A stretch of 62,640 nt of DNA. Origin: an uncultured Asticcacaulis sp. (GTDB lineage: Bacteria > Pseudomonadota > Alphaproteobacteria > Caulobacterales > Caulobacteraceae). Below, one piece after another: positions 10,785 through 62,640 of this stretch (its first letter is position 1; each line of letters opens with the position of its first letter). The notes under the pieces are model-generated. The model searched no databases and had not been told where the DNA came from. It worked only from the letters and a program-made list of their open reading frames with translations. A program made the translations under genes and the position numbers. Location of the stretch: contig CAKZJB010000004.1 in NCBI GenBank assembly GCA_936940865.1, positions 1 through 62,640 on the forward strand, given 5' to 3'.

Positions 10785-12269
10785 TCAGGCCACCAGGCGT
10801 TCGACGTTTGCCTTGACGCCGTCCGACGACTGCACGACGGCCCGGAAGGCCCCGGTAATGCGCGTCAGGCTTTCTTCGATATCATGCACTGCCGCGACGG
10901 CCGCCTGCATGTTGCCGGAAATCTCGCCGGTGACTGCATGCTGCTCCTCGATAGCGCTGGCGACGTTGCTGACGCTGTCCAGCACGTGGGTCATCGAGCC
11001 GGAGATGAGGCTGAGCGCGTTGGCCACTTCGGTGCTGACCGACTGGATCTTGGCGATTTCGGTGCCGATGGTCTTGGTCGAGGCCGACGCCTGGTTGGCC
11101 AGCGTCTTGACCTCCGACGCCACGACGGCGAAGCCCTTGCCCGCTTCGCCCGCGCGGGCGGACTCGATGGTGGCGTTCAGCGCCAGCAGGTTGATCTGCG
11201 ACGCGATGCCCTGGATGAAGGCGACCACGTTGTTCATGGATTCGGCCGATTCCGAGAGGCGGGCCGCCGAGGTGTTGGCGACTTCGGCATTGCGGAAGAC
11301 GCCTTCGACGCTGGAGCGCGCCGCCGACATGCTGGAAGCGATCTCGCGCACGCTGGCGCTCAGTTCCTCGGCCGCGGCCGCCACGGAATTAACCATGGAG
11401 CTGGTTTCCGTCGAGGCGCTGGAGGCGCCCGACGCCATCTCGTTGGCGCCTTCCATCTGCACCAGCACGTCGCCGAGTTGTCCATCGATCTCGCGGCCGA
11501 TTTCGTCGTTGCGCAGACGGCGCCGCACCGCTTCGGTCACGTCCGTGGCGAATTTCACCACCTTTATTACCCTGCCGGCATCGTCGAACACGGGATTGTA
11601 GGAAGCCTGGATATAGACCTCCCTGTCGTTCTTGCCGATGCGGCGAAACTCGTCGGCGATCAGTTCGCCCGCGGCCAGGCGCTGCCAGAACCGGTCGTAA
11701 TCCTGCGACGCGACGTAGTCCGGATCGCAGAACATGCGGTGGTGCTGTCCCTTGATCTCGGCCAGGGTATAGCCCATGGCCTTCAGAAAGTTGTCGTTGG
11801 CGGTGATGACGGTGCCGTCCGTCGCAAATTCGATGATCGCCTGGGCGCGGTCGATTGCCGCGATCTTGCCGGCATAATCCATAGCCTGCTGCTTGGCCTC
11901 GGTTATGTCGGCCGCCAGCTTGATGACTTTGGTCACACGGCCCTTGCCGTCAAAGACGGGATTGTAGGTCGCCTGCAGCCAGACATCACGGCCGTCCCGC
12001 GCAATGCGCTTGAATGCGCCGGACTGGAATTTGCCAGAGGCGAGCTCCCGCCAGAAGACGCGATAGGCGTCGCTGGCGACGAAGGCCGGATCGCAGAACA
12101 TCTGGTGATGCTTGCCCGCCACCTCGTCGGCGCGATAGCCCATGACCTTGAGGAAATTTTCGTTGGCGTTCAGGACCCGTCCGTCGGGCGTAAATTCGAT
12201 GACCGCCTGCGAGGCGTTGAGCGCGGCCACGACGGAGGCCAGATTGTCGGTGGAACGGCGATGGAACAT
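10785..12269 (-). CDS. Soluble methyl-accepting chemotaxis protein with two PAS domains (BdlA-like)
   Basis: Cytoplasmic chemoreceptor of 494 residues with no membrane segment. Two tandem PAS domains (about 15-130 and 135-250) are clear repeats of each other: [20 protein letters not shown] versus [20 protein letters not shown], each ending in a PAC motif (YNPVFD...ITEA / VTEA). The rest is the helical signalling domain with the CheA/CheW-contacting tip [23 protein letters not shown] 12269 has GGGAG upstream and is preferred to the GTG at 12305. The layout matches BdlA of Pseudomonas and Aer-2-like receptors, which sense redox or energy state through PAS ligands. Ligand here is unknown. Confidence 0.92.
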
Positions 12270-12425
12270 GGTAGTCTCCCGGGGGCGTTGCATTTGCCGA
12301 CTCACAGTCGCGCCTAGCCGAATAGATGCTCCTGCGTGCTTTACACCGGGTTAATTTCGGTGTTACCGCCGTGCAAGAAAGCCGCGTCCGGCCACGCATG
12401 ACGCGCAGCCGGACGCTGTCGGGAG

Positions 12426-15212
12426 TTAAAGTTTCCAGCGCAGGGCGACGCCGTAATAGCGGCCTTCGTCGCGGATATCGCGCGGGAACTGATGGCCCGG
12501 CGAATAGTAGCTGAAGTTATGGTACGGGGTCGCCAGGATATTGCTGACGTCGAAGTTCAGAGTCAGGTGGGGGTTGAGCGTATAGTTCAGCGAATAGTCG
12601 AGACGCTCGACCGGGTCGGTGCCTTCGCCGGTAAAGCCGCCGTTCGCGCTTGACTGATAGTATGAGTTGATCCAGCCCGAGCGGCCGTTGAACGACAGGC
12701 GTGTCGAGATATTGTTCTTCTCGTAGAAGACTGCCAGGTTATAGCTCCATTTGGAGACGCCGGTGATCTGGACGTAGTCGGGGAAGACGCCGAGGTCGCT
12801 GGGCATCCGGTTCCTGGCGTCGAGATAGGTGACGTTGGCCTGCACGCCCAGGCCGCTCCATTTGCCGGGCAGGAAGTCGAAGAAGGTCTGGCCGCCGACC
12901 TCTATGCCCTTGATGCGGCCCTGGCCTGCGTTTTCCGGCCGTGAAACCTGGATCAGGCCATAGGTCGGATCCTGGACGCGGCGGGTGTAGTTCGAAATGA
13001 AGCCGAACAGGTCGCGATAGAAGACCGATGCTGTCAGCGAGCCGGTGCGCGAGAAATAGTATTCCGCCGTCGCGTCGTAGTTGGTCGAGGTCAGCGGTTT
13101 CAGGTCCGGATTGCCGGATGAACCATACGCGTCGGGCGCGTCCGCCGGGGTGCTGGAGGTCTTCACGTTCTGCGAGATGGTCAGGGCCGGGTTCAGCGCG
13201 CCGAAATCGGGCCGCGTCCGCGTCTTGGTGACGGCGAAGCGGAACTGGAGCTGTTCATTGGGCCGCAGACGCAGGCTGATATTGGGCAGCACGTCGATAT
13301 AGTTCTGGTACGAGGTGCGCGGCACGGACTGGGTGGCGCCGTTCCACGTCACGCTCGAAATTCCGCTGTAGTCGCCGATCGTATTGACGGCGCGCAGCCC
13401 GATGTCGCCGTCGGCATCGATGCCGAACAGCCTGGTTTCATAGCGGGTCTGGACATAGGCCGTGCGTGTCGATTCGCGGGCGTGGAACCCCCAGAGCGGA
13501 TTGTAGTCCAGCGGCTTTTGCCAGTTGGCCAGGGTGTCCTTCCAGCCCTGGTCGTTCGGATTGAGGGCGACAAGCTGCTGCAGCGCCTGAACCGTATAGG
13601 CTTCCAATGCCTTGGTGTGGCTTTGCACGCCGTCGACGGTCGGCTCCAGCCACTGGCGGAAGCCCTGCACGCTGCCGCGGAAGGTATCCTCGGTCAGGGT
13701 CAGATCACCGAACGGCGTGTCGGCGAAGGGCAGGGCCAGCGGCAGCGTCCAGGCGTAGCGGTTGCCGTTACGCAGGTAGGCGCTGCGATTGGTATAGCGC
13801 AGGCCGGCCTTGATGTTTTTGAAAATGCCCCAGTCGGTCTGGTAGACGATGTCGCCGCGCCACTGGATGCCGTTGCCTTCGGTCTTGTATTTCGACTGGT
13901 AGTAGCCGCGCCAGATGTAGCTGTTGGGATCGGACAGGTTGATGTTGGTGACGTTGAACGCGGCGCCGCCGTTCGGATCGTCGGCGCGGAAGGTCACGTC
14001 GACGGTCGGCGCATCCTTGAATTCCGAATCGATGCTCCAGGATTCCGAGGCGTAGATGCTGTCCGTGTAAGCGAAGTCTGTGGACGCCTTAAGGCGGCCA
14101 TTGTTGTAGATGGCGCCGAACGCGATCTGCGACGTGTCGGTACGGCCCTTGCCGGTCGAACGGTAAAAGTCCCCGACGCCGCCGCCCGACTTGGTGAAGC
14201 TGAGCGCCTGGTTGGAATAGAGCGGATCGAGGACGACATTGCTCAGGGTTTGGGCATCGTTCAGCGACATCCGCGTCCAGTCGGCCGCGCCCTTTGCGCG
14301 ATAGGCCTGCCACAGCAGCTCGGCATAGAGTTCCAGATTGTCCGACACCTTCCACTGGAAGGCGGCGTTGGCCGAGGGCCGCCAGCGCAGGCCGCTGTCC
14401 ATATAGGTGCCGACGCCCGAGGAATAGTTGAACGTATTGCCGGCCGAGGCTGGCGTGATCGTCTGGTTTGAATTGGCCGTGACGATCCAGCCGTCGGCCC
14501 AGCGCACGGCGTTGCGATAGTTCTGCTCCGTATAGGACAGGTTGAGCAGGGCGCCCATTTCGCCGACGGGCGTGTTCCAGCGGTCGCTGATCAGCACGTT
14601 GCCGTTGACGTCCATCTTGCCGTTCTGGTCGTTATAGGTTTCGCGGAAGGCTCCGTCCATTTCGAAGCCCTTGAAATCGAAGGGGCGGCGGGTACGCACA
14701 TTGATCAGGCCGGCCAGGCCGGGCTCAAGCAGGTCGGCCGTCGCCGACTTGTAGACCTCGAGCGAGGCCAGCGCGCCGGACGGGAAGTCCTGCATCTGCA
14801 CGCGGCGCAGTTCCGCCGTCGAGATGTCGCGCCCGTTCACCGTCGTGGCGACATCCGGCAGGCCGCGGACCAGCACGCCAGAGCCTTCGTCGCTGTAGTG
14901 GGTGATCTGCACGCCGGGCAGGCGCGCCAGCGATTCTGCGGCATTGTTGTCCGGAAGCTTGCCGATGTCTTCGGCGACGATGGCGTCCAGGATCGAGTCG
15001 GACTGCTTCTTGATCTGCTGGGCCGACCGCATGCTGGCGCGATAGCCTTTCACGACGACCGTGGAGTCGGCGTCCTTGCCGGCCTTGTCCTTTTGGGCCG
15101 TATCCGAGGCCGTGGGCGCAGGGGCCGTATCGGCCGACTGGGCGTGCGCGGTTCCCCAGGCCGCAATGAGAAGCAGGGACGCCGACGCCAGAAGGTGCGG
15201 TTTCAAATTCAT
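12426..15212 (-). CDS. TonB-dependent outer-membrane receptor
   Basis: Outer-membrane beta barrel of 928 residues for active uptake of a large substrate. A signal peptide (about 1-24, ending AHA) is followed by a short linker and a plug domain (about 60-190) with the features of the Caulobacter/Xanthomonas-type receptor family (DNNAAESLARLPGVQI, VLVRGLPD, TVNGRDIS). The remainder is barrel strands ending GVALRWKL. ATG 15212 has GGAGGAAA upstream. This family is often used for oligosaccharides. The secreted alginate-lyase-like protein at 18808 is the nearest polysaccharide gene, but they are not in one operon, so the substrate is open. Confidence 0.93.
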   Translation of the reverse strand: MNLKPHLLASASLLLIAAWGTAHAQSADTAPAPTASDTAQKDKAGKDADSTVVVKGYRASMRSAQQIKKQSDSILDAIVAEDIGKLPDNNAAESLARLPGVQITHYSDEGSGVLVRGLPDVATTVNGRDISTAELRRVQMQDFPSGALASLEVYKSATADLLEPGLAGLINVRTRRPFDFKGFEMDGAFRETYNDQNGKMDVNGNVLISDRWNTPVGEMGALLNLSYTEQNYRNAVRWADGWIVTANSNQTITPASAGNTFNYSSGVGTYMDSGLRWRPSANAAFQWKVSDNLELYAELLWQAYRAKGAADWTRMSLNDAQTLSNVVLDPLYSNQALSFTKSGGGVGDFYRSTGKGRTDTSQIAFGAIYNNGRLKASTDFAYTDSIYASESWSIDSEFKDAPTVDVTFRADDPNGGAAFNVTNINLSDPNSYIWRGYYQSKYKTEGNGIQWRGDIVYQTDWGIFKNIKAGLRYTNRSAYLRNGNRYAWTLPLALPFADTPFGDLTLTEDTFRGSVQGFRQWLEPTVDGVQSHTKALEAYTVQALQQLVALNPNDQGWKDTLANWQKPLDYNPLWGFHARESTRTAYVQTRYETRLFGIDADGDIGLRAVNTIGDYSGISSVTWNGATQSVPRTSYQNYIDVLPNISLRLRPNEQLQFRFAVTKTRTRPDFGALNPALTISQNVKTSSTPADAPDAYGSSGNPDLKPLTSTNYDATAEYYFSRTGSLTASVFYRDLFGFISNYTRRVQDPTYGLIQVSRPENAGQGRIKGIEVGGQTFFDFLPGKWSGLGVQANVTYLDARNRMPSDLGVFPDYVQITGVSKWSYNLAVFYEKNNISTRLSFNGRSGWINSYYQSSANGGFTGEGTDPVERLDYSLNYTLNPHLTLNFDVSNILATPYHNFSYYSPGHQFPRDIRDEGRYYGVALRWKL

Positions 15213-53168: not shown

Positions 53169-54161
53169 TTACGCCGGCGTGGCGGCCTGAGACGCACTGA
53201 CCATGGCCTTTTGCAGCTTCTCGAAAGCCCGGACCTCGATCTGGCGGACGCGTTCGCGCGACACGCCGAAACGCTCGGCCAGGTCTTCCAGCGTCGTCGG
53301 ATTGTCCTTCAGACGGCGCTCGGTCAGGATCTCGCGCTCACGGGCATTCAGCTCGCCCATGGCGGTTTCGAGCAGGCCCATACGGATGTCGTACTCTTCC
53401 GAGTCCGCCAGCACGGTTTCCTGGCTCTGCTGCTTGTCGTCGACCAGCCAGTCCTGCCATTCGCTGTCGCCTTCCGAGGCGCGCAACGGCGCGTTCAGCG
53501 ACGAATCCGGCGACGACATGCGGCGGTTCATATTGATGACGTCGGTTTCCGACACGCCCAGCTTGGTGGCGATCTGCTCGACCTGGTCGTGGCGCAAATC
53601 GCCTTCCTCCAGCGCCGAGATTTCGGACTTCACCTTGCGCAGGTTGAAGAACAGCTTCTTCTGCGCGGCGGTCGTGCCCATCTTGACCAGCGACCACGAG
53701 CGCAGCACGTATTCCTGGATGGCCGCCTTGATCCACCACATGGCATAGGTCGCCAGGCGGAAACCGCGGTCCGGATCGAACTTCTTGACCGCCTGCATCA
53801 GCCCGACATTGCCTTCGCTGATCACTTCGCCGACCGGCAGGCCATAGCCGCGATAGCCCATCGCGATCTTGGCCACCAGGCGCAGGTGAGAGGTCACCAG
53901 CCGGTGCGCGGCCTTGGGGTCCTGATGCTCGGCCCAGCGCTTGGCCAGCATGAACTCTTCGTCCTTGGCCAGCATGGGGAATTTTCGGATTTCGGCCAGG
54001 TAACGGTTGAGGCCGCCGTCCGGAGACAGCGAGGGGAGGCTCATCGTGGCATTGCCACCGGTGACGGCGAGAGAGGTGCTCATCGGCAGTTCACTTTCGG
54101 AACGTTCGTCTTTTGATTCGGAGGTTTCTGAGGACTCAGAAAAAGGAGACGTGTCGGTCAT
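53169..54161 (-). CDS. rpoH: RNA polymerase sigma-32 factor
   Basis: Heat-shock sigma factor of about 330 residues from ATG 54161. Region 2 includes EVISEGNVGLMQAVKKFDPD and FRLATYAMWWIKAAIQEYVL. The RpoH-specific box is WSLVKMGTTAAQKKLFFNLR. Region 4.2 has LEDLAERFGVSRERVRQIEV. The start is uncertain: ATG 54083 (MSTSLAVTGG) gives the usual RpoH length, whereas 54161 adds a 26-residue Ser/Glu-rich leader (SPFSESSETSESKDERSESE) in frame. Neither has a strong ribosome site. Convergent with the pseudo-receiver gene. It should direct chaperone and protease genes. Confidence 0.95.
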   Translation of the reverse strand: MTDTSPFSESSETSESKDERSESELPMSTSLAVTGGNATMSLPSLSPDGGLNRYLAEIRKFPMLAKDEEFMLAKRWAEHQDPKAAHRLVTSHLRLVAKIAMGYRGYGLPVGEVISEGNVGLMQAVKKFDPDRGFRLATYAMWWIKAAIQEYVLRSWSLVKMGTTAAQKKLFFNLRKVKSEISALEEGDLRHDQVEQIATKLGVSETDVINMNRRMSSPDSSLNAPLRASEGDSEWQDWLVDDKQQSQETVLADSEEYDIRMGLLETAMGELNAREREILTERRLKDNPTTLEDLAERFGVSRERVRQIEVRAFEKLQKAMVSASQAATPA

Positions 54162-54409
54162 GAGGCCTGCACCTTCGTCCGCGAGGGGGATAACGCAAGG
54201 CAAGGTACTGACCCATGGCCGGCAACCCTGCTGATATATGTACGAACCCGCAGAAAAAAAGATGCGTGTTTAGCAAATTTTTATCGTCGCTGGTCGCGCA
54301 CGGCATACTGCGGTTCGCGGGTGCAAAAAGGCAATGAGGGCGGGATCACAATGTGGTGCGTGGGAACTGCAAAAGACTGAAAGGCGAATCAAGGACGCGC
54401 TTAGCGTCT

Positions 54410-55513
54410 TCAATCGCACTCTAGTAGACCGGCCAGAACCTTTTTTGGCATGTATTGGTTGAGAAAATCGGCAAGGTGCGCCCTCGTGAGATAGGGAGCG
54501 CCCGTGCCATTGTATAAGGTGGTAAATTTGCCGAACTTCTGAATCAGGCGCTTCAGTATGTCGTTGGCAGTGATGTCGTCCTTACAGCGAATCGCGAACA
54601 AGCAATCCGACAAGATTACGGGTCTTTCTGTATGGATTACACAGAGGTTGTCTGGTCGCACCTTTCCGACGCGAGGCAGCAGAACATAGTGTCCGGTATT
54701 GAGCTTTCGACCACGTGCTTCTTGTTCCGGTGTGAGACCGTAAATTTCTGCGACCTTTCCTTGCTTGATCGACGTCGTATGAATCATTCCAATTGCGCTA
54801 GAGGTTGCGATACGCTCCGACTTCTTCGTCGAAAGGTTGCCTCGCAGGATAGAACTTAGAGTACGGTATTCTGAATTGTGCGTATTTTCCTCTTTGCCAA
54901 GAATTGCCGGAGATTTGTAGGGTCGAATATTTGAAATTCGAGCAATATAAGTTGTCGCTGAAATTTTCGGGAAAACGCCAAGCTCCGGCTTTGTTAAGAA
55001 TTCAAAGTTGCATATATCTTTCAATATCAATCGAGCTTCGTTATCGAGATCGCTGTGGAGTGTAGAAGCCGGAAGTATCGCTAGTATTTCGCCGTTTTCT
55101 TCAAGATGGGTTGTTGCTGTCAGTAGAAAAGCCATAGCTCTGCTACAATCGACGCGATCGAAAAGGCCCCTGGGTTGCCATCGCTTTGCTCCTCTATTTG
55201 CGAATGGAGGATTCAAGACAATTGTACTAAACCGATCAAAGCCTAGGAGCGACAGCTTCTCTGGCAGTTCCGCACTAAGGAAGTCCACTGAGCTGGCCAA
55301 GGCAGATGGTACCTTTTTACTTGCCGATCCTAATGCATCTTTGTCTACATCATTAATAAAGAGCCGAGCTGTAGGCCACTTCGCAGCAGCGGCCCTAATT
55401 AGGCTCCCATCCCCAACGCAAAAATCGGCTACCGCGTGTGACTCCGTCAACAAAGAACTACCTACCAAGTAATTGGCAGTCTTCTCCGGCGTATAATGAA
55501 GTATATCTTTCAT
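54410..55513 (-). CDS. N6-adenine DNA methyltransferase-like protein of conflict operon
   Basis: Rossmann-fold methyltransferase of 367 residues. The SAM motif I is VADFCVGDGSLIRAAAAKWP (about 29-47) and the catalytic motif IV is VLNPPFANRG (NPPF at 101-104), typical of N6-adenine (gamma/beta-class) methyltransferases. The N-terminus YTPEKTANYLV resembles HsdM/Eco57I-type enzymes that start before motif I. The C-terminal half may be a recognition region (GRKLNTGHYVLLPRVGK). ATG 55513 overlaps the preceding stop by one base (TAATG). It is the last gene of the four-gene AT-rich operon, with no nuclease of a classical restriction system beside it. Activity on DNA is inferred from motifs. Confidence 0.8.
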   Translation of the reverse strand: MKDILHYTPEKTANYLVGSSLLTESHAVADFCVGDGSLIRAAAAKWPTARLFINDVDKDALGSASKKVPSALASSVDFLSAELPEKLSLLGFDRFSTIVLNPPFANRGAKRWQPRGLFDRVDCSRAMAFLLTATTHLEENGEILAILPASTLHSDLDNEARLILKDICNFEFLTKPELGVFPKISATTYIARISNIRPYKSPAILGKEENTHNSEYRTLSSILRGNLSTKKSERIATSSAIGMIHTTSIKQGKVAEIYGLTPEQEARGRKLNTGHYVLLPRVGKVRPDNLCVIHTERPVILSDCLFAIRCKDDITANDILKRLIQKFGKFTTLYNGTGAPYLTRAHLADFLNQYMPKKVLAGLLECD

Positions 55514-56463
55514 TATTGGCCTAGGCTTTGGAAGGAGGAAATGTCATATAAATGGCATTTGCCGCTACCTCGCGTTCGTCCTGGCTTGCGAACGGGATGG
55601 TCGTATAAAATGTCGCAGGAGCTATCTCGCAATGCATATAGCATTGCCCCAAGGGCGTGTGGCTTGGTTCCAATTGTAGCGACTTGAATTCCTCTTCCTG
55701 GCCATTCACCTCTAAGGCGTTCGATGTGGCCATAAACCGAGAAGGGACATGCCGCATCAACATAGTCAACACGTTGCCATGCACGCGTCGAGCTCAATGC
55801 GCCCGCATTTCCTTCAAACGTGTGAAACGGATAATCTATCTCGAATCCCGGCACTCCAACAATTGGGAATATATCCGCATCGCTTGGCTCAACGGTTTCA
55901 ATTAGGTGCTTGAATCGGGCGCCCTCGTAACCAAGCAAGGGAATTAAAAGGCTGGGGGTATTTGCCCGGCGTGGTATCCGAGCAAAGGTAGGCACAGGTT
56001 TAAAACCGGTCGTCCTTTCGCTCAAATCAAAAAAGTCCCCTGGTTTGGGATTAGGACTGGGCGTATAGACGTCCGGCTCCGTGTATAAGCATTGGACCTT
56101 CTTACCTGATTCCACAATCATCCGTAGCAGTGGCATCCAAACCTGGTGTCCGAGGCCGGTTATATCTAGGTAAATAAGCGATTCCTTACAATCGTTTATC
56201 CATTGTCGTAAATCGGCATTGTCGCGCAGAGAAAAAGATTTTCCAGGCAAATGGTCGATTAACACCTGCCCATCGTCCGTGCCCTCCGTAATTTGGAAGA
56301 CTTTCTGTGCCGAAAATTGCGTCAACCATGAGTGAGGCAGTTCACTTCTAGTCTCGGAGTGACCAAACATTAAGATGGCGTTTGTATCAAATGCTACATC
56401 TTCGCGGGTTGAGTGAACTTTATGAGGGGGCGAATAAATCCCGGAGTCAGCGAAAGTATTCAT
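55513..56463 (-). CDS. Unknown protein of conflict operon
   Basis: Protein of 316 residues with no motif I recognise. It is rich in aromatic and charged residues and looks alpha/beta (LIYLDITGLGHQVWMPLLRM, VQCLYTEPDVYTPSPNPKPG, SLLIPLLGYEGARFKHLIET, IFPIVGVPGFEIDYPFHTFE). The IGTKPHALGAMLYAL segment near the end recalls small-molecule-binding folds, but this is weak. No signal peptide or membrane helix. ATG 56463 lies 17 bases inside the end of the ATPase gene, so it is translationally coupled, and its stop overlaps the methyltransferase start. Composition is AT-rich like its partners. It is the most novel member of the module. Confidence 0.78.
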   Translation of the reverse strand: MNTFADSGIYSPPHKVHSTREDVAFDTNAILMFGHSETRSELPHSWLTQFSAQKVFQITEGTDDGQVLIDHLPGKSFSLRDNADLRQWINDCKESLIYLDITGLGHQVWMPLLRMIVESGKKVQCLYTEPDVYTPSPNPKPGDFFDLSERTTGFKPVPTFARIPRRANTPSLLIPLLGYEGARFKHLIETVEPSDADIFPIVGVPGFEIDYPFHTFEGNAGALSSTRAWQRVDYVDAACPFSVYGHIERLRGEWPGRGIQVATIGTKPHALGAMLYALRDSSCDILYDHPVRKPGRTRGSGKCHLYDISSFQSLGQ

Positions 56464-58300
56464 CGAACATACTCATCTGAACTGGCAACGCCTCATCGGC
56501 CAATTCTGCGCGTTGGCCAAGTAGCTTTCTTACTGTTTCCTGCGGTTTGTGCGTAAGTGCAATTAACTCATTTTCAGCCACTTTCATTTTTCGCTTCCGT
56601 CGATGGCTAAAGCCAAAATACGGAGCGAAGATAGGGTGAGGAGCATAGTCCCATGAGCGAATATCGGAATCGGTAGTCAACTTTGTCCCAGGGGTGCGCA
56701 CTAGCGCCAAATGCATGACTGCCTCAGTTAGCAAGGTTTTCACTTCAGCATGTTCCTTCGGGGAGACTTGTTCCTCAGAGAGTTCGAATTGATTGCATTC
56801 GGGTTTCCCGCCTATTGGGTTGGACGCCATCAACTGGAACACGCGACCGAGACCCAGAAGCAGTTTGGCTAATGAGCCGCCCTGTGTCGAAACGCCTTCG
56901 AGCTCTCGTAAATAACTTAATCCAACCTTTCGCGCAGCTATGGTTTGTTGCTGCGGATCAATAGGTTGCGATGTGCTCTTCTCGACCCCGATTTGTTCCC
57001 GGATACATTCGTTTACAAGCTGCATGTAAAACCGAATATTCTGATGTGTCAGTTTTGATAAAACTGAATGCCCACAGTAATATTTGGTAATTTTTGCGCC
57101 TTTCCCGGAGATGGAAAACAGCATGGAGTAGGCGTAATTTTCATACTTATTGACTGCCGGCTTAACGCCAAGGTAATAGTCGTCCAGATCTTCTATTGCT
57201 TTATTAAAATTCCTCCGAGATAACTCTTGGAATACAAAAAGTTCGTGGTCGTGCAACTCCAGTAATCTAACGGTTTTTGAGCTCTTTTTTAGGTGGGATT
57301 TAAACTCTTCTACGTGTCGATCTACTCCTAAAGCGATTGCTTCGTCCTTCACTGTCATTCCCGGAAGAAGGGTTTCGACATCAATAGGAGGCCCAAAATC
57401 TTCAAGGTCCGCAGCTTTCAGCCGGGCTTCACATACGCGTTTAGCGAAGCTGGAAAAATCCTTTTCAAGCTTTTCTTCAATCCGAATCCGTTCGTAGTCA
57501 GCGGGGCTAATTAAAACTTCGGAATGGTTCAGGGTAGTTCTCTCCCTCCACCCAAGCTCGCGCACACCTATTTTGAAGTAGTAATTTTTACCTGCGTGTT
57601 TAATTAACGTATTAACTAAACGTTGTTGATAATCCAAAAAATTTTCATATTCATCAAGTATTATAAAAAAAATTGCATTGCTATGACCGTCAATTTTTCC
57701 CAATTCCTCCATAATAATATCAATCGGAGTTTGGAGGGGCGAGACGGTTGGCTTTGTGTTGCCAAAATTATTAATGAATACCTCTAAATTTACACGCGCA
57801 TTTTCAACTTCATCTGCAAATTCGTCTAGCGTTTCACATTTATTTAGGCCTAGAACTCTTCCCACTCGTTGATAGCTAACATTTTTATCGACTTGAGATT
57901 CTTTGCGTTGTTCTTTGAGCCATCTTATGTAGCTGACGGCTTCCTCGCAGAGCATAAGGTTTAAGAAGTGGCCAAAAAACCGCTGCCAAGCGTCTTGCGT
58001 AAGTTCTGCTCCTTTAAATGACGCGACCGTATTAGTGTTTATTTTTGTATAGAGCCCGACATACTTGGGCTGTAACAAGTCTATTTTTCCAAGAGCGGCT
58101 TGCCCTTCATAAGACATGCAGCGTAGAACCGTCGTTTTTCCAGAGCCGCGTCCACCAATTAAGACGCAGGATTTTGGCGCCTCTAGATAGTAAAAATATT
58201 CCGGCTCATTAAAAAGACTATATATATTGTCCCTAAGTGACTCAGCCCTAAAGCTTCCAAATAACTGCTCCAATTTTTCCGCTGTGCTATTTGGTGACAT
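56447..58300 (-). CDS. ORC/AAA-type P-loop ATPase of conflict operon
   Basis: ATPase of 617 residues. Walker A is CVLIGGRGSGKTTVLRC (K55), Walker B is AIFFIILDEYENFLDYQQRL (D216, E217), and the following IGVRELGWRERTTLNHSEVL segment is in the position of sensor 1/arginine finger. The GGRGSGKT/ILDEYEN pattern resembles STAND- and ORC/Cdc6-like ATPases of prokaryotic conflict systems. The long C-terminal half (after about 330) is helical with no recognised domain. ATG 58300 has AGGAG upstream and shares one base with the PRTase-like stop (TGATG). An earlier in-frame ATG (58327) lies inside the previous gene and is not needed. It should power assembly or signal sensing for the module. Confidence 0.85.
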   Translation of the reverse strand: MSPNSTAEKLEQLFGSFRAESLRDNIYSLFNEPEYFYYLEAPKSCVLIGGRGSGKTTVLRCMSYEGQAALGKIDLLQPKYVGLYTKINTNTVASFKGAELTQDAWQRFFGHFLNLMLCEEAVSYIRWLKEQRKESQVDKNVSYQRVGRVLGLNKCETLDEFADEVENARVNLEVFINNFGNTKPTVSPLQTPIDIIMEELGKIDGHSNAIFFIILDEYENFLDYQQRLVNTLIKHAGKNYYFKIGVRELGWRERTTLNHSEVLISPADYERIRIEEKLEKDFSSFAKRVCEARLKAADLEDFGPPIDVETLLPGMTVKDEAIALGVDRHVEEFKSHLKKSSKTVRLLELHDHELFVFQELSRRNFNKAIEDLDDYYLGVKPAVNKYENYAYSMLFSISGKGAKITKYYCGHSVLSKLTHQNIRFYMQLVNECIREQIGVEKSTSQPIDPQQQTIAARKVGLSYLRELEGVSTQGGSLAKLLLGLGRVFQLMASNPIGGKPECNQFELSEEQVSPKEHAEVKTLLTEAVMHLALVRTPGTKLTTDSDIRSWDYAPHPIFAPYFGFSHRRKRKMKVAENELIALTHKPQETVRKLLGQRAELADEALPVQMSMFDEYFR

Positions 58301-59196
58301 CACGATCTCCTCATGAGGGGTTTCCAACCGTTTCTTTCGGAGAAGAATATTGGAAGGCTAGCATCCGGTATGCCATGTTCAAATGCGACGGTAAGTCCTA
58401 GCCCATGAAAACCGTGCCAAGCGTCTTCGCTTTTATCGTCTAGCGGGTACCCCGCTCGCGCGGAAATAAGCTTAAGAGCAGAAACCGCGTCAGTAGCTTG
58501 TGTTGGGCTGAGGCCGTCCCAAATACGTGAATTCGATAATGTCGCATTATGCTTTTCACTTAAAATATGCGCGGGATAGAGCGATATTTCTGGATAATAC
58601 GGCAATATACGGTCGTATATTGAATACGATGTCATCACGCAGGGGCAATACGACACGGAATAGGTTCTATCTTTTACCAGTGTTTTGAATGATTGGTGTG
58701 GTCCGGTAACGTTATGTTGTCGCTCGATCGTGTCGAGAAACTGGTTGCCGCTACCAGTAAAGTCGTCCACAAATATAAAATGTTTGACGGAAGCAGCGTC
58801 AAATAAAGCCTGCTGGGGTCTTAGTATTAAAGATTCTGGAATTCGAATGGCATCGCGGAGCTTTCGAGCGAATAAATTTCCACTGTCAGTTACATGTGGA
58901 TTTTCGCCTTCGACAATAACAAACCGAACTTTATCCATACGGATCGATGACGGAGGTTTGTTGAATGAAGAATCTTCCCATTTTCCAGTGAGAAACTTTT
59001 GAATAGCCTGCCGGAGCAGCGCATCAGTCATTGAGCGGTTGAAATATGTAAAACTTGATAGAAGCTTTTCTGCAATATATTTTTCTTCTTCAAAAAAATT
59101 TTCTAGCCAGCGTTCTACATTAAGATCCTGCTGACGCGGCCATACCCCGAAGTCTCGGAAATGTTCCGTTCGTTCGTTTATTAACGCTATAGACAT
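58300..59196 (-). CDS. Phosphoribosyltransferase-like protein of conflict operon
   Basis: Protein of 298 residues. The segment HFIFVDDFTGSGNQFLDTIE (D144, D145, S149, G150) is the PRPP-loop signature of type I phosphoribosyltransferases (hhhhDDxxxTG). Upstream, VRFVIVEGENPHVTDSGNLF could be the hood/strand region. Outside this there is little similarity to metabolic PRTases, and the N-terminal 80 residues are helical. From memory, PRTase-like proteins with a VDDFxGSG loop next to ORC-type ATPases are placed in predicted bacterial conflict systems. It is the first gene of the operon; ATG 59196 has AGGA seven bases upstream. Substrate unknown. Confidence 0.82.
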   Translation of the reverse strand: MSIALINERTEHFRDFGVWPRQQDLNVERWLENFFEEEKYIAEKLLSSFTYFNRSMTDALLRQAIQKFLTGKWEDSSFNKPPSSIRMDKVRFVIVEGENPHVTDSGNLFARKLRDAIRIPESLILRPQQALFDAASVKHFIFVDDFTGSGNQFLDTIERQHNVTGPHQSFKTLVKDRTYSVSYCPCVMTSYSIYDRILPYYPEISLYPAHILSEKHNATLSNSRIWDGLSPTQATDAVSALKLISARAGYPLDDKSEDAWHGFHGLGLTVAFEHGIPDASLPIFFSERNGWKPLMRRS

Positions 59197-59587
59197 ATCA
59201 TTTCCTAATCGGAGCGGGGTAAGCCGGCCAAAACGTAAGCATTTACTGTGTCAGGTTGCTTTATGTCTTTGGAGTAGGGGCTTCAGCATGTTTCATGACT
59301 AGGAAACTTTTTTCGGCTAGAGATTTCGTTGGACAAAGGAAAAGGCTTTGGCCGAAACGAATCAGCATGACGTATTAGCATGCCCGGCTTTTGAAATTCG
59401 AAAATTAAATTTCTTGAATGGCGATGCCAATCACTGAAAGCGCTTAAGCAATAAGAAGGTGACGTCATATCGGCTCTCGTCGGTCTGATTGGGAATCGTG
59501 GGAATTGGAATCGTGGGAATGGGAATCGGGGGACAGGGGCAATATTCCCTACGATTTTGCGGAGTGACGTCAACGCCACCTCCGCGC
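59197..59587. other. Promoter region of the conflict operon, and island edge
   Basis: 391 bp without a gene. The part near 59197-59470 is AT-rich, like the operon, and should hold its promoter. At about 59470 composition switches to GC-rich. The 15-bp tandem repeat at 59492 lies at that switch. Confidence 0.5.
59492..59528. repeat. 15-bp tandem repeat at island edge
   Basis: GGAATCGTGGGAATT, GGAATCGTGGGAATG and a partial GGAATCG stand head to tail. The location, where AT-rich DNA gives way to GC-rich core sequence, makes it a possible scar of island insertion. No matching copy was found at the other edge (54200-54409). Confidence 0.75.
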
Positions 59588-60703
59588 CTAGTGCGACACT
59601 TTCCAATTGACCGCCAAGGCCAATCTGCGATGCGCTGTCGGGCGGCCGAGGGCGTCCTGGTCCGCCACCGAGATATGGCCGTTGAATATTGCCTCCAGCG
59701 TCTGGCCGTAGCCTGCGCGTTGCGGATATTCGCGCTCCAGGATACAGGCGTCGAGCGTGTGGTCGGCGGCGACATGGCAGATGATCGTCGCACTGCCTTC
59801 GACGGTGACCTCGTTCACCCAGCTGGAGAAGGACTGGGTGAGCAGCGATACCAGACGCTTGTACCCCATGGATTCGGTGTGCGGGCCGGCCTTGTCGCTA
59901 TAGGTATGGGTCATGGCCATCTCGGTTCCGTTGTCGGACATGCAGATCGTCAACAGGGGGGCTGATTTCGGCTGGCCCTGGGCATGGACATTGCCCCGCC
60001 GCGCGGCGTTTTCATAAAGCCAGCCGGCTTCGTCGGCGTCGGCGGGGCCGCCCTGGCCAGCCGCGACCATCTGGGCCAGGTGATCCATGGCGTCGGGCGA
60101 TCCCAGATAGACGCCCCGGCGGAACCATGGCCGCGCCAGGTCTGGTTTGCCCTGGGCCAGCAGGTTCTGGCCCATGGCATCGGCGGCCTCTCCGCTGCCG
60201 CCCTTGGTCGCCAGGGCGTAGAGGCTGCGGGCCGTGTCCTCATCCTTCGGGCCGCTCAGACCCATTTGATAGTCATAGGCGCCGGCGAACATCAGGACGG
60301 CGTTGTTGCTGGCCAGCTTGCCGCAGAAGGCCATGCCCTTGGCCGGATCGCGCGGCCGGCCTTCGCCCAGCAGGTAGGCGACGCACATCTTTTCGCGGCC
60401 GATCTGATCGCCCTTATCCGCCGCCTTTTCGTAGAGGTCGAGCGCCGCCGCGCGGTCGGGTTCGGCGCTCGCGTCGCCCTGCTCGTAAAGGGTCGCCAGA
60501 TCGATCATGCTGTCGACAAGGCCATGGTCGGCCTGTCGGGTCAGGTCGGCGCGCAGGGCCTTGGCCTGGGCGATGGCCTCCGGCGGGGTCGGCGTTGTCG
60601 GGGCGTTGTCGGCGGGGCAATGGTAGGTATTGCGGTCGCCGGCGTGAACGTGAAACGGAATCATCAGCACAATGGTTGCCGTTGCGATCGCTTTTGCTGT
60701 CAT
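59588..60703 (-). CDS. Secreted Sel1-repeat protein
   Basis: Exported protein of 371 residues. Signal peptide ends about VHA (residue 21). The middle has Sel1/TPR-like repeats: DSMIDLATLYEQGDASAEPD, ALDLYEKAADKGDQIGREKM, CVAYLLGEGRPRDPAKGMAF and AMDHLAQMVAAGQGGPADAD with AGWLYENAARRG. Such alpha-solenoids bind other proteins. The C-terminal about 120 residues form a distinct domain without repeats (TICMSDNGTEMAMTHTYSDK). ATG 60703 follows a GGGGGG-rich leader. It is divergent from the DUF4031 gene by 104 bp. Partner and role unknown. Confidence 0.85.
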   Translation of the reverse strand: MTAKAIATATIVLMIPFHVHAGDRNTYHCPADNAPTTPTPPEAIAQAKALRADLTRQADHGLVDSMIDLATLYEQGDASAEPDRAAALDLYEKAADKGDQIGREKMCVAYLLGEGRPRDPAKGMAFCGKLASNNAVLMFAGAYDYQMGLSGPKDEDTARSLYALATKGGSGEAADAMGQNLLAQGKPDLARPWFRRGVYLGSPDAMDHLAQMVAAGQGGPADADEAGWLYENAARRGNVHAQGQPKSAPLLTICMSDNGTEMAMTHTYSDKAGPHTESMGYKRLVSLLTQSFSSWVNEVTVEGSATIICHVAADHTLDACILEREYPQRAGYGQTLEAIFNGHISVADQDALGRPTAHRRLALAVNWKVSH

Positions 60704-61146: not shown

Positions 61147-61673
61147 CGCGGCGGGTACGTCGCATATATTTATGCGATTATATTTCCTGCTGACGTTCGG
61201 GTCTCAGGCGCGGGGTCGAGCGCTTTCGCAATCCATTCATGAATTTCACGCCAATTCCGCCGGAAATTTCCAAGGCGACTGAAAACACGCTAAAATTTTA
61301 TCGTACAATTTTTGCCTTGAAATCAAAAGTAATCCGATTTAATGTGGCTGAAATCCTCTCGATATGAAGAGAGCGGCCGTATCAACGAGGCCCATGGGAG
61401 AGGGCGCAAGGCCGCGAATGCCTGGAGATTCGGTTTCCGGGCGCAGTGCAACACTGTCGCGTTTTTAGTGCCGCGGCCGGAAGGTTCGCCTGAATCGCAT
61501 CCGCCGCCGTTACAGCCTCACGCTGAAAACAATTTTCAATCCCCGGAAAGGATTCGCGCCTGCACGAATCCCGGAACGGGCGCGTCGCGCCTCATGCGCG
61601 GCGCGCGGTCTTGATGCAGGGCCGGCACCGCCATGACAAGCGCGGGCGGCTTCATAAAGAGAGGAAGAGCAAA
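61147..61673. other. Intergenic region upstream of GH5 gene
   Basis: 527 bp with an AT-rich stretch at about 61160-61190 and another at 61280-61345, separated by mixed sequence. The hairpin CGCATATATTTATGCG is at 61161-61176. I see no supported gene. The GH5 promoter is probably within the last 300 bp. Confidence 0.45.
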
Positions 61674-62640
61674 ATGAAAACAGTCATCCGGCTTGCCATC
61701 GCCGCCGTGTCCGCAGCGTCTCTGGCGGGCCTTGCCGCCGTGCCGGCCCACGCGGGCACCGGGCAGTTCGATGGCGTCAACTGGGCCGATCCGCGTGACA
61801 ATTTCGCCGACGACGCCCTGGTGCTGTCGGGCCTGACGGCGGCCGACAGCTACGCCACCGTCAAGGCCAAGGCCCAGTCGATCGCGGCCGAATTCTATAC
61901 CAAGGTCGGCGCCAACACGATCCGCATCCCGATCAATCCGGCCACCGTGAACTCCAGCCGCTGGGCGGCGTACAAGGGGGTGATCGATGGCATCCGGGCG
62001 CAGGGGGCGCGGGTGATCATCGCCTATTGGGAAGGCACCAACCGCGATGGCGTGATCGACAACACGACGGCCTACAACACCATGTGGGATACGGTCGTGG
62101 CGGCCTATGGCTCGGACAGCTTCGTCTTCTTCGAGCCGATGAACGAGCCCCACGGCTATACGCTGTCGGCCTGGGGCGGCGTCGCCGCGGCCTGGCTGGC
62201 GCGTTATCCCAACATCTCGCGCGACCGCGTCGTCGTCGACGGCCAGGGCTATTCCGAAAACGTCACCGGGGTGTGCGCCGACAGCCGCCTGAACGGAACG
62301 CTTCTCGGCCTGCATAACTATGCCTACTGGGCCAACCGCACCTACAACCAGTGGCTTGCCGACTGGAGCAGCCGCATCGGCTCGTGCGCCAGCCGCACCG
62401 TCATCACCGAATTCGGCGCGACCATGAACACGGGCCTGAACTACAGCGCCCCGTCGTCCAACAACGAAGTCATGTACATGCAGGCCGCCACCAAGACCGC
62501 GCGCGACAATGCCATGGGGCTGGTCTACTGGCCGGGCCTGCGCGACGGCGACAGCTACAGCTTAACGACGCGCGGGGGGGCGGGCACGAACATCACGCTG
62601 ACCGTCGTCAACGCGTCGGGCAAGAACAACGTGCAGTATG
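61674..62640 (+). CDS. Secreted glycoside hydrolase family 5-like enzyme (partial)
   Basis: Secreted endoglycanase-like protein, at least 322 residues, truncated by the window end. A signal peptide (about 1-27, PAHA) precedes a TIM-barrel with the GH5 order: an early GANTIRIPINPATVN segment (conserved Arg), the acid/base FFEPMNEPHG (E158), then LLGLHNYAYW (conserved His/Tyr) and the nucleophile VITEFGATMN (E246), followed by MGLVYWPGLRDGDSYSL (substrate-platform Trp). After about residue 300 (GAGTNITLTVVNASG) a second, carbohydrate-binding-like domain seems to begin. ATG 61674 has GAGGAAG upstream. Cellulose or a related beta-glucan or mannan is the likely substrate. Confidence 0.9.
   Translation, partial: MKTVIRLAIAAVSAASLAGLAAVPAHAGTGQFDGVNWADPRDNFADDALVLSGLTAADSYATVKAKAQSIAAEFYTKVGANTIRIPINPATVNSSRWAAYKGVIDGIRAQGARVIIAYWEGTNRDGVIDNTTAYNTMWDTVVAAYGSDSFVFFEPMNEPHGYTLSAWGGVAAAWLARYPNISRDRVVVDGQGYSENVTGVCADSRLNGTLLGLHNYAYWANRTYNQWLADWSSRIGSCASRTVITEFGATMNTGLNYSAPSSNNEVMYMQAATKTARDNAMGLVYWPGLRDGDSYSLTTRGGAGTNITLTVVNASGKNNVQY

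What the first reader, a model, noticed from the sequence alone, without database searches (positions are those of the whole stretch)
54410..59196. Four-gene AT-rich module: PRTase-like, ORC-type ATPase, unknown protein, N6-methyltransferase
The sequence shows four minus-strand genes with overlaps of 1, 17 and 1 bases, in DNA visibly poorer in GC than both flanks (rpoH side and Sel1 side). Motifs are a PRPP-loop (VDDFTGSG), Walker A/B (GGRGSGKT, ILDEYEN) and NPPF. PRTase-like plus ORC/STAND-type ATPases are known from predicted bacterial conflict systems; adding a 316-residue protein with no recognised family and a methyltransferase would make a new variant. The PRTase could modify a nucleotide or nucleic acid on infection, the ATPase act as sensor, and the methyltransferase mark self.
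Basis: partly seen in the sequence, partly recalled or inferred. Interest (0 to 1): 0.88.

Follow-up and report, generated by a model that had tools for sequence, protein, structure and literature searches.

The report
CARF-sensor, PRTase, ATPase, methylase operon
A conserved four-gene bacterial operon, probably a phage-defence system, joins a CRISPR-style nucleotide sensor to a phosphoribosyltransferase, an ATPase and a DNA methylase, and in many relatives sits beside enzymes that handle uracil or thymine nucleotides; its defence role is predicted, not shown.

Summary
In detail: four overlapping minus-strand genes (59196-54410) in 45.7% GC DNA, the rest of the window being 64.4%. Three identifications hold: PRTase-CE, ORC-CDC6-like ATPase, N6-adenine DNA methyltransferase. 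The 'unknown' third protein matches PADLOC's CARF6 model (E 1e-104), and its predicted fold is closest to CARF/SAVED sensors. In 26 countable loci of 29 examined, PRTase-ORC-CARF6 keep their order, and 24 have the same methylase family beside them; 23 of the 26 were found through CARF6 itself. Neither Cas10 nor a SMODS cyclase was detected in the window's genome. Unexpectedly, 16 of 26 loci carry a dUTP/dTMP gene beside the operon (two unrelated dUTPase folds, ThyX, one dCTP-deaminase-like protein); the window's copy does not. Best reading: a methylation-guarded, nucleotide-gated defence system with the PRTase as effector. The parts were already filed as conflict or defence families, so it is a new variant of a known kind. 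Defence activity, the CARF ligand and the PRTase substrate are untested.

The parts
58300..59196 (-). PRTase-CE protein, 298 aa; probable effector (or signal-making enzyme)
   Evidence: PF24390 E 1.1e-49, 170.1 bits against cut-off 27; PADLOC PRTase_III-A E 4.6e-20; PRTase fold, best solved matches uracil PRTases at E 1.5e-3, TM to query about 0.3; D144 22/23, D145, G148, G150 23/23
56447..58327 (-). ORC-CDC6-like ATPase, 626 aa from TTG 58327 (617 aa from ATG 58300)
   Evidence: PF24389 E 1.1e-127; G58, G61, G63, K64, T65 and D225, E226 23/23
55513..56463 (-). CARF6 protein, 316 aa; two CARF-like lobes in one chain (inferred); no fused effector domain found
   Evidence: PADLOC PDLC01913 E 1e-104; AlphaFold pLDDT 84.1, pTM 0.85; Foldseek matches to Cam1, Can2, Cap4 SAVED, Card1, Csm6; D100 24/24, T102 24/24, G103 24/25, T266, K267, P268 24/24
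54410..55513 (-). N6-adenine DNA methyltransferase, 367 aa, with a conserved C-terminal region that may recognise the target (inferred)
   Evidence: Profile of 13 family members matches HsdM of EcoR124II E 5e-15 and BseCI E 2.4e-14; window protein alone: MTS PF05175 7.5e-8, PADLOC mad2 6.3e-13, MTase_II 1.6e-10; N101, P102, P103 23/23, F104 22/23

Best explanation
A nucleotide-gated phage-defence operon. The methyltransferase marks the cell's own DNA at an adenine site. The ORC/CDC6-like ATPase binds or scans DNA and is held inactive on marked DNA. The CARF6 protein, two CARF-like lobes forming an internal pseudo-dimer, binds a nucleotide whose level changes on infection and licenses the ATPase. 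The activated complex releases the PRTase, which damages the nucleotide economy of the infected cell, most likely at the pyrimidine or PRPP level, and stops phage replication. In many relatives a dUTPase or ThyX keeps dUTP low, protecting the host from a side effect of the PRTase or setting the sensor's resting state. Shown here: families, motif conservation, predicted folds of CARF6 and PRTase, conserved gene order, adjacent dUTP/dTMP genes. Inferred: every functional step, the sensor and effector roles, the self-marking and the ligand.
For: Conserved unit: 26 of 26 countable loci keep PRT-ORC-CARF6 in order on one strand; the window's methylase family is fourth on that strand in 20, first in 3, on the other strand in 1; L010 has another DNA methylase family, and L013 a similar-looking one not tested. 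Distances of the four proteins correlate over 19 of these loci (Spearman 0.70-0.89, 0 of 999 permutations as high). Upstream of ORC-CARF6 the enzyme is swapped elsewhere: HD-CE (L066, L068) or a calcineurin-like phosphoesterase (L067), with C5-cytosine methylases in L066 and L068; a constant sensor with an exchangeable enzyme is a usual pattern of defence systems (recalled). PRTases are called typical effectors of type III-A retrons and probable effectors, mode unknown, in a DprA-PRTase system that protects against T7 and lambda (PMC12548924 and PMC9122126, passages). CARF6 by family and fold. Horizontally moving context: AT-rich DNA, plasmid copies, sparse occurrence. Of nine hand-picked neighbours in six loci, six match PADLOC models, one of them weakly.
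Against: No phenotype data. The window copy has no dUTP/dTMP gene, so that link is accessory. Sequence profiles find no solved relative of CARF6 (best E 0.25) or of the PRTase (0.85). The PRTase fold match is weak (no E below 0.001); the CARF6 match has one below 0.001, with KaiC chains at rank 3 and lower. The window's CARF motif has H106 where the published [DN]X[ST]XXX[RK] has K/R. Of 11 loci fetched through the ORC family, only 1 (L065) has all four genes, 3 have a PRTase with a diverged CARF-like gene, 3 lack a PRTase, 4 show neither by my profiles. In the Ter system PRTases are read as signal makers (PMC7824862, passage). Defence islands were not tested systematically.
Confidence: 0.5

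Rival explanations
1. The PRTase is the signal maker, not the effector: on infection it joins a base to PRPP and the product is the CARF6 ligand; CARF6 then switches the ORC ATPase, which acts on DNA itself.
For: PRTases are read as signal-biosynthesis enzymes in the Ter system (PMC7824862, passage); a PRTase lies beside the CARF protein in 26 of 26 countable loci, while neither Cas10 nor a SMODS cyclase was detected in the window's genome; related loci add HAD-type, PfkB and NADAR genes that look like nucleoside chemistry.
Against: HD-CE and calcineurin-like proteins, whose kin usually hydrolyse phosphoesters (recalled), take the PRTase's place; no nuclease domain was found in the ATPase; PRTases are called effectors in retrons and DprA-PRTase.
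Confidence: 0.25
2. A DNA-modification and nucleotide-supply cassette: methylase, PRTase and dUTPase/ThyX serve DNA metabolism or replication of a mobile element, and the ORC-like ATPase is a replication or partition factor.
For: dUTPase, ThyX and deaminase genes are common phage replication helpers (recalled) and sit beside 16 of 26 loci; ORC/CDC6 relatives include replication initiators (recalled).
Against: The window's operon lies beside rpoH, so most likely on the chromosome, and the copy L113 lies on a plasmid with its own RepA; the third protein is a CARF; 10 of 26 loci have no dUTP/dTMP gene.
Confidence: 0.12
3. An orphan epigenetic or stress module with no phage role: CARF6 senses a normal metabolite and the operon tunes growth or element transfer.
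For: The RtcR kind of CARF-like domain belongs to a regulator of RNA repair (PMC4012209, passage).
Against: Sparse distribution (5 of 299 genomes of the family; 1 of 385 of the class) and enzyme swapping fit defence better.
Confidence: 0.1

Closest known systems
Pfam 'CE' conflict families: ORC-CDC6-like (PF24389), PRTase-CE (PF24390), HD-CE (PF24391)
   Same: Two window proteins match far over the cut-off; relatives carry HD-CE in the PRTase's place.
   Different: Pfam names the domains only and has no model for the CARF6 protein. The four-gene order with methylase and dUTP genes was not seen in the listings and passages of my ten paper searches. The source papers (recalled as Burroughs and Aravind 2020; Makarova et al. 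2020 for CARF) are not held and were not read.
CARF6 family (PADLOC models)
   Same: Window protein E 1e-104; five further CARF-type partners tested (L010, L066, L067, L068, L069) all match CARF6 models.
   Different: In the 2014 census CARF genes occur in 145 of 659 genomes, only 9 of which lack both cas1 and cas10, and most fused domains are nucleases or other enzymes acting on nucleic acids (PMC4012209, passages); here there is no fusion and no Cas10 or SMODS cyclase was detected in the genome.
DprA-PRTase defence system of P2-like prophages
   Same: A DNA-binding partner with a PRTase thought to be the effector (PMC9122126, passage).
   Different: No DprA family in the operon; ORC ATPase, CARF6 and methylase instead.
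Retron type III-A
   Same: The PRTase matches PADLOC PRTase_III-A, E 4.6e-20.
   Different: No reverse transcriptase among the operon's four proteins.
BREX / DISARM / MADS
   Same: Methylation-linked defence logic (recalled); the methylase domain matches mad2 at 6.3e-13.
   Different: None of their other hallmark proteins was matched by the four proteins; the mad8 match of the ATPase is weak (5.8e-4).

Membership tests
PRTase-CE (PF24390) | Score over the curated cut-off | tested here: met
   170.1 bits, cut-off 27
PRTase-CE (PF24390) | Intact PRPP-loop residues | tested here: met
   D144 22/23; D145, G148, G150 23/23
PRTase-CE (PF24390) | Phosphoribosyl transfer activity | not testable with these tools
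   Needs an enzyme assay
ORC-CDC6-like (PF24389) | Score over the curated cut-off; Walker A and B intact | tested here: met
   427.6 bits, cut-off 27; K64, D225, E226 23/23
CARF6 / CARF superfamily | Match to family models | tested here: met
   PDLC01913 E 1e-104; seven further CARF6 models, five of them below 1e-5
CARF superfamily | CARF-type Rossmann fold | tested here: met
   Ranks 1, 2, 4, 5 are Cam1, Cam1, Can2, Cap4 SAVED, prob 0.96-1.00; rank 3 is KaiC (prob 0.38); only rank 1 is below E 0.001
CARF superfamily | [DN]X[ST]XXX[RK] after strand 4 | tested here: inconclusive
   N lobe DITGLGH ends in H, not K/R; L010 has DVTGFMR, a full match; the C lobe has GTK, invariant over 18 sequences
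Type III CRISPR ancillary CARF | Cas10 in the genome | tested here: not met
   PF22335: no match in G000
CBASS | CD-NTase (SMODS) in the genome | tested here: not met
   PF18144: no match in G000; over the cut-off in 3 of the 18 genomes searched
DNA N6-adenine methyltransferase | Closest solved relatives are DNA adenine methylases; NPPF kept | tested here: met
   EcoR124II HsdM 5e-15, BseCI 2.4e-14; NPP 23/23, F 22/23
Restriction-modification | Nuclease partner | tested here: not met
   No nuclease family over a cut-off in any of the four proteins
Retron III-A | Reverse transcriptase and msr/msd RNA | tested here: not met
   No RT family in the four proteins; the RNA was not searched
MADS | mad1-mad8 gene set (number recalled) | tested here: not met
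   Only mad2 (methylase domain) and a weak mad8 match among the four proteins
Any anti-phage system | Protection against phage | not testable with these tools
   Needs plaque assays

The most novel reading that the evidence does not exclude
An immune system gated by uracil-nucleotide (dUTP/dUMP) balance: a CARF sensor with no known cyclase at hand reads a pyrimidine nucleotide itself, the uracil-PRTase-like enzyme acts on the same pool, and the system has repeatedly recruited unrelated enzymes (all-alpha dUTPase, trimeric dUTPase, ThyX, perhaps a dCTP deaminase) that remove dUTP or make dTMP. This would be a CARF pathway that senses a metabolic imbalance, not a dedicated cyclic oligonucleotide.
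Probability: 0.15. Interest if true: 0.88.

Novelty: new variant of a known kind. Interest (0 to 1): 0.62.

Why it matters
What CARF domains sense where no Cas10 or CD-NTase is found is open, and the mode of action of PRTase effectors was stated as unknown (PMC9122126, passage). This operon puts both questions into one cloneable 4.8 kb unit with clear active sites. The recurring dUTPase/ThyX neighbours give a concrete, testable guess at the chemistry. A distant but complete set lies on Klebsiella plasmid pKPHS2, and the window's ATPase matches 129 Klebsiella plasmid records, the listed ones at about 23% identity (two Klebsiella loci inspected), so the kind may bear on which phages work on such strains.

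Tried and rejected
Third protein as unknown: rejected. Type III CRISPR or CBASS as source of the ligand: neither Cas10 nor SMODS found in the window's genome. Cas10 'palm' matches occur in 6 of 18 genomes, over the cut-off in 3; of the 14 matches 11 lie in frames of 307-434 aa and 3 in frames of 745-995 aa, and E. coli rings over the cut-off too, so I read them as diguanylate cyclases (inference; that E. coli lacks Cas10 is recalled). A clean insertion between rluD and rpoH: not shown. In none of 24 relatives did the Sel1 protein match within the fetched flanks of rpoH (up to 1.5 kb), and 8 of 8 that I listed have an rluD-like gene there (named by eye); but in the window's genome the rluD-like gene lies on another contig beside OmpA-like and receptor-like genes (by eye), so the region is rearranged. 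Viral contigs: none in two scans. NUDIX-like gene in L023: seen by eye, no Pfam match, not counted. dGTPase-like genes in L065 (610 bases off) and L007 (5.2 kb off) were not counted. The dCTP-deaminase-like gene in L022 is weak support: its near twin L019 lacks it. Promoter and terminator scan: no more sites than in shuffles. Solved relatives of CARF6 and PRTase by sequence: none. VIA-align library: not available. Rfam was not searched.
Full report
Observation. If the second gene starts at the ATG at 58300, overlaps are 1, 17 and 1 bases. GC of the operon is 0.457, of the rest of the window 0.644. The quoted motifs are present. The window's genome has one PRTase-CE match, this one.

What the proteins are. 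Gene 1 is PRTase-CE (PF24390, E 1.1e-49) and gene 2 ORC-CDC6-like (PF24389, E 1.1e-127). Gene 3 has no Pfam or NCBIfam family but matches PADLOC's CARF6 model PDLC01913 at E 1e-104, with seven other CARF6 models below it, two of them only at 0.001 and 0.015. Its predicted model (18 sequences, pLDDT 84.1, pTM 0.85) was compared with solved structures: ranks 1, 2, 4 and 5 are Cam1 bound to cA6 (twice), Can2 and the Cap4 SAVED domain, with Card1 and Csm6 lower. Only rank 1 is below E 0.001 and KaiC chains mix in at low probability, so the fold evidence is supporting, not decisive alone. The strand order and the two conserved sites (D100-x-T-G after one strand, G265-T-K-P after another) suggest two CARF-like lobes in one chain; that is inference. 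The published CARF signature is [DN]X[ST]XXX[RK] after strand 4 (PMC4012209, passages); the window has H at the last place, the Sinorhizobium protein L010 has R. Gene 4: a profile of 13 family members matches HsdM of EcoR124II (5e-15), BseCI (2.4e-14) and further DNA adenine methylases, ahead of METTL5 and HemK.

Active sites. In 23 aligned sequences, window included, the PRPP-loop aspartates are kept in 22 and 23, the Walker A lysine and Walker B acids in 23, NPP of the methylase in 23; in CARF6, D100, T102, T266, K267 and P268 are kept in 24 of 24. So all four look competent (inference).

Co-occurrence. Relatives were sought with the CARF6 protein or alignments of it: 5 plasmid records; 2 records filed as phage, near copies of each other, whose flank includes host-type genes; 5 of 299 genomes of the family, own genome included; 17 loci out of 30 stretches in the genome collection; 1 of 385 genomes of the class, the window's own; 4 of 369 of the class of the Ralstonia locus at E 0.001, two of them strong, one of these the starting genome. 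Two viral-contig scans found none. A PRTase search of the plasmids matched 145 records (two loci new by that route were fetched, L012 and L013) and an ATPase search 151 (one fetched, L113). The ATPase family matched 83 of 398 genomes of the phylum at E 0.001, 14 over its cut-off; 11 places in 11 of those genomes were fetched. Of these 11, only L065 has all four genes; L069, L070 and L072 have a PRTase and a diverged CARF-like gene; L066, L067 and L068 have no PRTase; L071, L073, L074 and L075 show neither PRTase nor CARF6 by my profiles.

I then examined 29 loci and set aside three incomplete ones (L016, L017, L027). Near copies (L014, L015, a second Moraxella plasmid, a second phage-filed record) and the IS26-cut L012 were not counted. 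Of the remaining 26, 23 came through CARF6 (or are the window) and three (L013, L065, L113) through the PRTase or ATPase, so the presence of CARF6 is given by the search in most, but that of the other genes is not. In all 26 PRT-ORC-CARF6 stand in that order on one strand (in L022 the PRT gene is cut by the contig end; in L013 the ORC gene is split). The window's methylase family is next to them in 24: fourth on the same strand in 20 (in L030 as two pieces), first in 3 (L024, L112, L113), on the other strand in 1 (L009). L010 has a different DNA methylase (N6_N4) before the PRTase; the matching piece of L013 looks alike but was not tested. Pairwise distances of the four proteins correlate over 19 loci (rho 0.70-0.89, 0 of 999 permutations as high); five diverged loci and two with a shortened ORF were left out of that test. 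By their titles the loci come from Alpha-, Beta- and Gammaproteobacteria, Nitrospiria, Corallococcus and an actinomycetote MAG.

Swapping. In more distant ORC loci the enzyme before the ATPase is HD-CE (L066, L068) or a calcineurin-like phosphoesterase (L067), while a CARF6 protein follows; L066 and L068 carry C5-cytosine methylases. Around L069, L070 and L072 lie HAD-type, PfkB and NADAR genes (each tested in one locus: L069, L070, L072; the rest by likeness); in L072 the ATPase did not score with my own ORC profile, though Pfam's does. So ORC plus CARF6 looks like the constant core, with an exchangeable enzyme and often a DNA methylase.

dUTP and dTMP genes. Beside the core, 16 of 26 loci carry at least one: all-alpha dUTPase (PF08761) directly upstream in 9; trimeric dUTPase (PF00692) in L020, L021, L032 and L065; ThyX in L010, L013 and L020; a dCTP-deaminase-like gene in L022. 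Of the nine all-alpha genes two were checked with Pfam, the rest with my own profile; the ThyX of L013 rests on phmmer alone. Fifteen of the 17 genes are on the operon's strand; the trimeric dUTPases of L020 and L065 face the other way. In L010 and L013 a methylase gene lies between ThyX and the PRTase. Seven overlap the operon by 4-11 bases as the ORFs are called. By nearest edge all 17 lie within 1.5 kb of the core, a zone that makes up 27% of the flanks searched; taking them as 8 separate lineages, chance is about 3e-5. Caveats: the search seeds were noticed in these very flanks; the nine all-alpha dUTPases are one clade (99/98 support); the tree has long branches and does not fully force the other gains to be separate; the deaminase-like gene may be an island neighbour. 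The ten loci without such a gene include the window. The best fold matches of the PRTase model are uracil PRTases (E 1.5e-3, TM to query about 0.3), which fits but does not prove a pyrimidine theme; orotate, adenine and guanine PRTases follow.

Signal source. The window's genome shows neither Cas10 (PF22335) nor a SMODS cyclase (PF18144). Among the 18 genomes searched SMODS passes the cut-off in 3. A ligand made by those routes is therefore unlikely in the window's host; other cyclases were not tested.

How it most likely works. Methylase marks self DNA; ORC-like ATPase checks DNA; CARF6 gates it by a nucleotide; PRTase is the effector. PRTases are described as effectors in type III-A retrons (PMC12548924, passages) and as a probable effector, mode unknown, in a DprA-PRTase system active against T7 and lambda (PMC9122126, passages). 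Against this, the Ter literature reads PRTases as signal makers (PMC7824862, passage). I put 0.5 on the first, 0.25 on the second.

Known or new. Consecutive Pfam accessions PF24389-24391 and the PADLOC CARF6 models show that the parts are already filed as conflict or defence families. The likely source papers (recalled) are not held. Ten paper searches listed no paper that I could recognise, from listing or passages, as describing this four-gene set or its link to dUTP genes; the library lacks most subscription papers. DefensePredictor names a dUTPase among predicted, unvalidated nucleotide-modifying defence domains and a thymidylate synthase among validated ones (PMC13092281, section 8 and passages); whether either is this system I could not tell. 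Verdict: new variant of a known kind.

Noticed in passing
L066, L067, L068: ORC-CARF6 pairs in which HD-CE or a calcineurin-like phosphoesterase stands in the PRTase's place, with C5-cytosine methylases in L066 and L068.
   Followed up: partly
L069, L070, L072: PRTase and CARF-like proteins clustered with HAD-type, PfkB and NADAR genes, as if making or repairing a nucleoside; each of the three families was tested in one locus only.
   Followed up: partly
L113:3801-8907 and L012: Methylase-PRTase-ORC-CARF6 set on Klebsiella plasmid pKPHS2; the window's ATPase matches 129 Klebsiella plasmid records. In L012 the ATPase gene is cut short beside IS26.
   Followed up: partly
L029 and L031: A contig binned as Akkermansia muciniphila carries a locus very close to that of a Burkholderiales MAG; probably a mis-binned contig.
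   Followed up: no
L030:8954-10002; L013:3667-9856: Decayed copies: the Tatumella methylase is in two ORFs, and in Rhizobium L013 ThyX and ATPase (apparently the methylase too) are split.
   Followed up: no
window 53169-60703; L115: Upstream of rpoH lie the operon and a Sel1 gene where 8 of 8 listed relatives have an rluD-like gene; that gene lies on another contig here, so the region is rearranged.
   Followed up: partly
L007:14652-16722; L008:3774-4931 and 12260-13843; L013:10313-11884: Neighbours that match PADLOC models: QueC and dGTPase, PDC-S02 and PDC-M55C proteins, a SIR2 protein with a Dsr1 match (nine hand-picked proteins tested).
   Followed up: no
L071 and L022: A dCTP-deaminase-like gene (Pfam DCD in both) with a flavin-oxidoreductase-like gene (Pfam in L022, by likeness in L071) recurs near two different ORC loci.
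   Followed up: no
window 61611-62639: A family 5 glycosyl hydrolase (cellulase) gene runs off the end of the contig.
   Followed up: no
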